From: Desulfovibrio sp. | GTDB lineage: Bacteria; Desulfobacterota; Desulfovibrionia; Desulfovibrionales; Desulfovibrionaceae | DNA length: 64,000 bases | Direction of reading: 5' to 3' | Assembly (NCBI GenBank): GCA_016218665.1 | Contig: JACRDI010000035.1 | Span: 1 to 64,000 of the forward strand | Shown: positions 19,029-19,796 of the stretch, piece by piece | How positions within the stretch are numbered: position 1 is the stretch's first letter | Layout of the letters: each line of letters begins with the position of its first letter | Translations under genes and position numbers: made by a program | Notes under the pieces: generated by a model | What the model was told of the DNA's origin: nothing | What the model saw: only the letters and a program-made list of their open reading frames with translations | The model's database searches: none

Positions 19029-19796
19029 ATGCTTTTGGGCACCCCCGCACCACGCAATGCCGACATAGAGGACGCGCTGCTCGCCCGTTTCCGCAAGGCG
19101 GCCGTGAGTCCGGCCGGGCTCTTCGAGTATCCCACCGGGCGCGACGGCCTGCGCGCCCTCGGTTATCCCGCCCCTTTCATCGAGAGCCTGCCCGACCGCG
19201 TGGCCCAGTGCTACTGCGGCGTGGGCAATCCCTTTGAGCCCGGCGTGCCGGACCCCGGCGCGCGCGTGCTCGACGTGGGCTGCGGAGCGGGCGTGGACGC
19301 AATCGCGGCGGCCCGTTTCGCCGGCCCGGATGGCTTCGCCGCGGGCCTCGAATTCTCGCCCGAGATGCTGGCCCGCGCGAAGGAGAACGCCGCGCTCTGC
19401 GGGCTGGAGAACGTGGAGTTCACCCAGGGCGGGGCCGCGCGGCTGCCATACCCGGACGCCTCCTTCGACCTCGTCATCTCCAACGGGGTGTACAACCTGG
19501 TGCCGGACAAGCCCCGCGCCCTGGCCGAGGCCTTCCGGGTGCTCAAACCCGGCGGCCGCTTGCAGGTGGCCGACCAGATCCGCGAGTCGGACCGGCCCAT
19601 GGCCTGCCCGCTGCCGGCCCCCGGGGAGTCGCCCGGCGCCATGTGGGCCAAGTGACAGGACGGCGCCGTTCCGGGAAAGGTTTTCCTGGAGATGATTGAG
19701 GCCGCCGGCTTCCATGACGCCCGCCTGCTGCGCGCCACGGGGTTCAAGAGCTCGCCGCTGACCATGGGCATGGTCTTCTCCTGCCGCAAGCCGTAA
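19029..19796 (+). CDS. SAM-dependent methyltransferase (ArsM/UbiE-like), probable selenoprotein with Sec at TGA 19653-19655
   Basis: Methyltransferase motif VLDVGCGAGVDAIAAARF. ORF 19029-19655 halts at TGA; same frame continues QDGAVPGKVFLEMIEAAGFHDARLLRATGFKSSPLTMGMVFSCRKP to TAA at 19794-19796; SECIS-like hairpin at 19671-19689. Confidence 0.82.
19671..19689 (+). promoter_or_regulatory. Candidate bacterial SECIS element
   Basis: CCGGGAA-AGGTT-TTCCTGG: 7-bp stem (one G-U) with GGU apex, starting 15 nt after the TGA. Confidence 0.7.

What the first reader, a model, noticed from the sequence alone, without database searches (positions are those of the whole stretch)
19029..19796. Hidden selenoprotein: ArsM/UbiE-like methyltransferase with in-frame UGA and SECIS-like hairpin
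Seen directly: the 208-codon methyltransferase ORF ends in TGA at 19653-19655, but the same frame runs on for 46 sense codons (QDGAVPGKVFLEMIEAAGFHDARLLRATGFKSSPLTMGMVFSCRKP) to TAA at 19796. The residues around the TGA (W-A-K-U-Q-D-G-A-V ... FLEMIEAAGF) line up with the conserved Cys region near the ArsM C-terminus (WxxCxxGA ... aGF), so Sec would replace a catalytic Cys. Fifteen nt after the TGA, CCGGGAA-AGGTT-TTCCTGG folds with a GGU in the apical loop, the hallmark of SelB-binding bacterial SECIS elements. Gene callers would truncate this protein and lose its likely active-site residue. The substrate (arsenite, selenite or another thiophilic species) is unknown.
Basis: partly seen in the sequence, partly recalled or inferred. 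Interest (0 to 1): 0.85.

Follow-up and report, generated by a model that had tools for sequence, protein, structure and literature searches.

The report
Selenocysteine-containing ArsM-like methyltransferase gene
A bacterial methyltransferase gene that gene callers cut short at a UGA codon really reads through it as selenocysteine at an active-site position; it is a stand-alone member of an already catalogued group of ArsM-like selenoproteins, whose members lack two of the three cysteines that true arsenite methyltransferases use.

Summary
In this Humidesulfovibrio-like genome the 208-codon methyltransferase ORF ends in UGA (19653-19655) and the frame stays open for 46 codons to TAA (19794-19796). 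Alone, the open frame and the hairpin are not unusual; comparison decides. UGA sits at the aligned codon in 13/13 orthologues in related genomes and 79/80 loci fetched without reference to that codon. The tail evolves as protein (pN/pS 0.31 versus 0.34 upstream). The hairpin shows compensatory changes and strong synonymous-codon bias, and meets published bacterial SECIS rules. The genome has selA, selB, tRNA-Sec and selD. U209 aligns with CmArsM Cys224; the tail supplies the last helix and two strands of the fold. It is not a new kind: Sec-containing ArsM and fused forms (NF008823 UxxG, NF041536, NF041537, NF047649) are catalogued. Added here: the stand-alone, single-Sec form, truncated in databases; no Cys form was found; and it lacks ArsM Cys72 and Cys174 (Val, Gly), with invariant Cys63 and Sec209 instead, so arsenite as substrate is doubtful. 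Function as a metalloid methyltransferase is inferred.

The parts
19029..19796 (+). Whole coding sequence with UGA read as Sec: 255-residue ArsM-like SAM-dependent methyltransferase, start ATG, stop TAA
   Evidence: orthologues; tail pN/pS 0.31 versus 0.34 upstream
19653..19655 (+). In-frame UGA = Sec209, aligned with CmArsM Cys224
   Evidence: UGA in 13/13 orthologues, 79/80 loci; PDB profile alignment
19669..19691 (+). bSECIS hairpin: core stem 19671-19678 / 19682-19689, apical loop GGU 19679-19681, 23 nt between UGA and loop
   Evidence: Pair counts with shuffles and slid controls; synonymous-codon bias; folding
19215..19217 (+). Codon for Cys63 (YCGVGNPF), invariant in the close family, two residues before the position of CmArsM Cys72 (Val65 here)
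19485..19487 (+). Codon for Gly153 (SNGVYNL), where classical ArsM has the As-binding Cys174
19656..19793 (+). 46-codon tail lost by gene callers; modelled as the last helix (216-225) and two strands (229-240, 245-253) of the methyltransferase core
   Evidence: AlphaFold2 mean pLDDT 90, tail blocks about 89-96; database homologues of 199-221 aa, those inspected ending at the UGA

Best explanation
The gene encodes a selenoprotein. UGA 19653-19655 is decoded as selenocysteine by SelB and tRNA-Sec, directed by the hairpin at 19669-19691, giving a 255-residue single-domain SAM-dependent methyltransferase with the ArsM fold. Sec209 takes the place of the third conserved ArsM cysteine (CmArsM Cys224). 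Shown by comparison: recoding, SECIS, Sec machinery, fold and position. Inferred: the selenolate of Sec209, helped by Cys63, binds a soft thiophilic substrate, most likely a trivalent arsenical such as As(III) or methyl-As(III), in line for methyl transfer from SAM; a Cys63-Sec209 selenenylsulfide may reset the enzyme, replacing the ArsM disulfide relay. I put the recoding at about 0.97, 'metalloid methyltransferase' at about 0.6, and 'arsenic specifically' at about 0.45. The confidence given is for the selenoprotein with ArsM-like methyltransferase fold, not for the substrate.
For: UGA conserved in 13/13 orthologues and 79/80 loci fetched with motifs [YF]CGVGNPF and PG[GA]R[LV]Q[VL]AD that do not include the UGA. 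In 398 sampled genomes of the phylum, every match above 260 bits spans one TGA. Tail pN/pS 0.31 versus 0.34 upstream and 1.3-1.6 in the other two frames. Hairpin: covariation score 0.188 versus 0.110 shuffled (0/500), 39 two-sided changes versus 9.0; pair 29-39 is G-C in 69 and A-U in 7, pair 32-36 is A-U 46, G-C 8, C-G 4, U-A 4. Gly codon GGA 63 observed versus 14 expected, Leu CTG 76 versus 32, Pro CCG 65 versus 26, while codons outside the stem are near expectation. It meets the published bSECIS limits. selA, selB, tRNA-Sec and selD over cut-off; selB over cut-off in 12 of the 13 orthologue genomes, the exception 73% complete. Eleven best PDB fold matches are ArsM. An independent classical ArsM (L032) also has UGA at this column.
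Against: No biochemical proof of Se. One close homologue (L128) has GGA in place of UGA, with the hairpin kept. Val65 and Gly153 replace two of the three conserved ArsM cysteines, which weighs against plain arsenite methylation. No ars operon neighbours the gene here: a PhoU-like protein and a phosphate permease lie upstream and a response regulator downstream.
Confidence: 0.93

Rival explanations
1. UGA is a true stop: the 208-residue protein is the product and the following open frame is a chance extension or decayed end.
For: Gene callers stop there; long open frames past a TGA are common in this GC-rich window (14 of 22).
Against: The tail evolves under protein constraint in this frame only, is conserved across several phyla, and carries the last helix and two strands of the fold. 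A plain stop would vary between TGA, TAA and TAG; here TGA is kept in 79/80.
Confidence: 0.02
2. UGA is read as another amino acid (for example Trp by code change) or by unspecific readthrough.
For: One database homologue (P0039) shows Trp at this site, probably translated with TGA = Trp.
Against: TGA is a normal stop in the genome (22 of 40 long non-overlapping window ORFs end in it); the hairpin is conserved and covarying; Sec machinery is present; the aligned residue in ArsM is Cys.
Confidence: 0.01
3. It is a selenoprotein, but the substrate is not arsenic: Sec209 handles another soft species (selenide or methylselenol, tellurium, antimony, mercury, or a thiol compound) in an ArsM-derived scaffold.
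For: Cys72 and Cys174 equivalents are Val and Gly throughout the close family; in distant Gly153/Sec209 homologues even Cys63 is missing; no ars genes beside it in the window.
Against: The ArsM fold is by far the nearest; ArsR-family regulators lie near two fused relatives; a chalcogen at the Cys224 position is kept.
Confidence: 0.4

Closest known systems
ArsM_AhpD_UU (NF041537), ArsM_DUF2284_UU (NF041536) and MTase_UXPK_star (NF047649) selenoproteins; review PMC13188914 credits them to Haft & Tolstoy 2025
   Same: N-terminal methyltransferase domain homologous over its length (E 1e-86, 7e-82, 2e-73), same UxxG Sec, same Cys63/Val65/Gly153 pattern in loci of these architectures
   Different: The window protein has one domain and one Sec, no AhpD, DUF2284 or UXPK tail, and scores 291/275/247 bits against cut-offs of 510/575/460
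Sec-containing arsenite methyltransferase listed under NF008823 (UxxG, WP_011987699.1; review PMC13188914 cites Fomenko et al. 2007)
   Same: Sec at the aligned UxxG position; L032 is a locus of this type
   Different: Classical members keep GCGNP and SNC (Cys72 and Cys174); here these are GVGNP and SNG; score 162 against a cut-off of 263
CmArsM / CrArsM / human AS3MT (PDB 4fr0, 5evj, 8xt7)
   Same: Fold and overall sequence (profile E 3e-31 to 5e-40 for the algal enzymes; fold search ranks 1-11 are algal ArsM); U209 aligns with Cys224
   Different: Cys to Sec at 224; Cys72 and Cys174 absent; shorter, without the C-terminal extension

Membership tests
Bacterial selenoprotein | In-frame UGA conserved in homologues and aligned with Cys (or Sec) of related proteins | tested here: met
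Bacterial selenoprotein | bSECIS: 3-9 nt loop with G in its first two positions, 4-16 bp upper stem, 16-37 nt from UGA to loop, MFE at or below -7.5 | tested here: met
   Loop GGU, 8-10 bp, 23 nt, about -12 kcal/mol; covariation
Bacterial selenoprotein | selA, selB, selC, selD in the genome | tested here: met
   all over cut-off
Bacterial selenoprotein | Sec shown in the protein | not testable with these tools
   Needs 75Se labelling or mass spectrometry
Arsenite methyltransferase ArsM (NF008823) | ArsM fold | tested here: met
Arsenite methyltransferase ArsM (NF008823) | Curated score cut-off of 263 bits | tested here: not met
   161.8 bits
Arsenite methyltransferase ArsM (NF008823) | Three conserved cysteines (CmArsM Cys72, Cys174, Cys224) | tested here: not met
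   Val65, Gly153, Sec209
Arsenite methyltransferase ArsM (NF008823) | Methylates As(III) | not testable with these tools
   No assay
NF041537 / NF041536 / NF047649 fused Sec methyltransferases | Homologous N-terminal domain with Sec in UxxG | tested here: met
NF041537 / NF041536 / NF047649 fused Sec methyltransferases | C-terminal AhpD, DUF2284 or UXPK part with further Sec, and model cut-off | tested here: not met
   TAA 46 codons after the UGA; below cut-offs

The most novel reading that the evidence does not exclude
A Sec-obligate clade of ArsM-derived methyltransferases has given up the three-cysteine arsenic site and works through one selenocysteine (with or without Cys63), on a substrate or by a mechanism different from arsenite methyltransferase; 'arsenite methyltransferase' is then a wrong name for the whole group, fused forms included.
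Probability: 0.35. Interest if true: 0.6.

Novelty: new member of a known kind. Interest (0 to 1): 0.42.

Why it matters
It corrects a gene model that loses the active-site residue and the last elements of the fold in most database copies (119 of the 120 best homologues listed are 199-221 aa). It also points out that the ArsM-like Sec proteins, named arsenite methyltransferases, lack two of the three conserved ArsM cysteines and have no Cys form among the homologues found. That makes a simple question testable: what does a lone selenocysteine do in a methyltransferase?

Tried and rejected
Single-sequence folding of the SECIS region: not significant. A search with the tail alone for full-length or Cys-form relatives: 17 candidates, none significant. 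Haft & Tolstoy 2025 is not held, so what it says about stand-alone forms is unknown to me. The plain-stop and TGA = Trp readings were rejected. Neighbour genes in the window gave no arsenic context. A quick tree put the Humidesulfovibrio stand-alone genes together, with fused forms scattered elsewhere, but support is too low to say whether the stand-alone form is ancestral.

Full report
Observation. The window holds an ATG at 19029 behind a GGAGG sequence, 208 codons of a SAM-dependent methyltransferase, TGA at 19653-19655, then 46 open codons to TAA at 19794-19796. In isolation they prove little: the 50-nt region folds no better than its shuffles, and many window ORFs that end in TGA have long open extensions, a few with hairpins.

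Host and machinery. The window's assembly (84% complete) encodes SelA (603 bits) and SelB (378 bits, cut-off 242) on one contig, tRNA-Sec (86.5 bits, gathering score 47), and SelD (322 bits), itself with an in-frame UGA (RAAGUAAKV).

Conservation of the UGA. A search of 60 related genomes plus the window's own gave 13 orthologues including the window gene, each with exactly one TGA inside the match, all at the same codon. A scan of one genome for each of 85,488 species with two peptide motifs that do not include the UGA gave 80 loci; 79 have TGA at the aligned codon and one, L128, has GGA. In 398 genomes drawn from the phylum, every match above 260 bits spans one TGA, while the matches below about 208 bits, largely classical ArsM, mostly have none. 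No Cys form of the close family was found. Of the 120 best database proteins listed, 119 are 199-221 aa long; those inspected end at the UGA.

The tail is protein. Between nine Humidesulfovibrio genes the codons after the SECIS have median pN/pS 0.31, against 0.34 in a 115-codon upstream block and 1.6 and 1.3 in the two other frames. AlphaFold2 (mean pLDDT 90) models residues 216-253 as a helix and two strands with high confidence; a protein cut at the UGA would lack them.

SECIS. The hairpin has an 8-10 bp stem, a GGU loop and 23 nt between UGA and loop, within the published bSECIS limits. On 78 distinct sequences, aligned without gaps, the stem has 86.3% standard pairs (81.3% shuffled), 39 two-sided changes (9.0) and covariation 0.188 (0.110); none of 500 shuffles reaches any of these three, and slid versions are all lower on them. 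The closing pair varies A-U, G-C, C-G, U-A; pair 29-39 switches from G-C to A-U in seven sequences, together with Gly to Glu and TTC to TTT. Synonymous choices in the stem are strongly biased while codons outside it are near expectation, and pS is 0.21 in the SECIS codons against 0.59-0.68 elsewhere.

What Sec replaces. A profile of the family aligns U209 with Cys224 of Cyanidioschyzon ArsM (chain position 224 of 4fr0), Gly153 with Cys174, and Val65 with Cys72. Across 82 sequences of the close family Cys63 and Val65 are invariant, Gly153 is 81/82 and Sec209 81/82; six classical homologues have Cys at 65 and 153, and Cys (five) or Sec (L032) at 209. More distant homologues with Gly153 also have Sec209, without Cys63. 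That Cys72, Cys174 and Cys224 are the three conserved cysteines of CmArsM is stated in PMC7248198; that they bind As(III) and form a disulfide relay is my own knowledge of the ArsM literature.

Architectures. Of the 80 loci about 50 are stand-alone like the window gene; the rest carry DUF2284 with Sec-Pro motifs, an AhpD-like domain with CxxU, or a short tail ending in motifs such as UAPK (assigned by motif, not by domain search). These forms correspond to NF041536, NF041537 and NF047649. In L067 an AhpD-like gene lies just downstream as a separate gene.

Known or new. The 2026 review PMC13188914 lists Arsenite methyltransferase (NF008823, UxxG) as a selenoprotein, citing Fomenko et al. 2007, and the three fused families, citing Haft & Tolstoy 2025. 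The kind is known. The window gene is a stand-alone, single-Sec member that no NCBIfam model listed covers at its cut-off.

Function. Best reading: Sec209 as soft nucleophile or ligand for a trivalent metalloid, methylated from SAM, with Cys63 as possible resolving partner. This is inference from fold and position. Against arsenite in particular stand the two lost cysteines and the lack of an ars context here: the neighbours are a PhoU-like protein and a phosphate permease upstream (17285-18914) and a response regulator with a SpoIIE phosphatase downstream (19839-21047).

Noticed in passing
L015, 1456 onwards (G000 contig C44): The genome's selD gene itself contains an in-frame UGA near its start (RAAGUAAKV), as in known Sec-containing SelD.
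   Followed up: partly
L159, L161, L162, L163: Distant ArsM-like genes with Gly at the Cys174 column all have UGA at the Cys224 column and lack Cys63, so Gly153 and Sec209 go together in nearly everything sampled.
   Followed up: partly
L128 (compare L119, same assembly): The only non-UGA copy in the close family has GGA with the SECIS hairpin intact; a second copy in that assembly keeps UGA. Sequencing error or recent mutation.
   Followed up: no
L063, tail of the methyltransferase gene: A DUF2284-type fused homologue with four UGA codons in one frame, three of them in repeated GGxUPxG motifs.
   Followed up: no
window 19839-22891: Response regulator/SpoIIE phosphatase, an unassigned gene and a CheA-Hpt-like gene in a row; the response-regulator gene also follows the methyltransferase gene in several other Humidesulfovibrio-type loci (L056, L057, L060, L062).
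   Followed up: partly
window 19008-20579 (-): A 523-codon open frame antisense to the methyltransferase gene, probably a by-product of high GC that could mislead gene callers.
   Followed up: no
P0039: A DUF2284-type fused database homologue shows Trp at the Sec site, probably from translation with TGA read as Trp.
   Followed up: no
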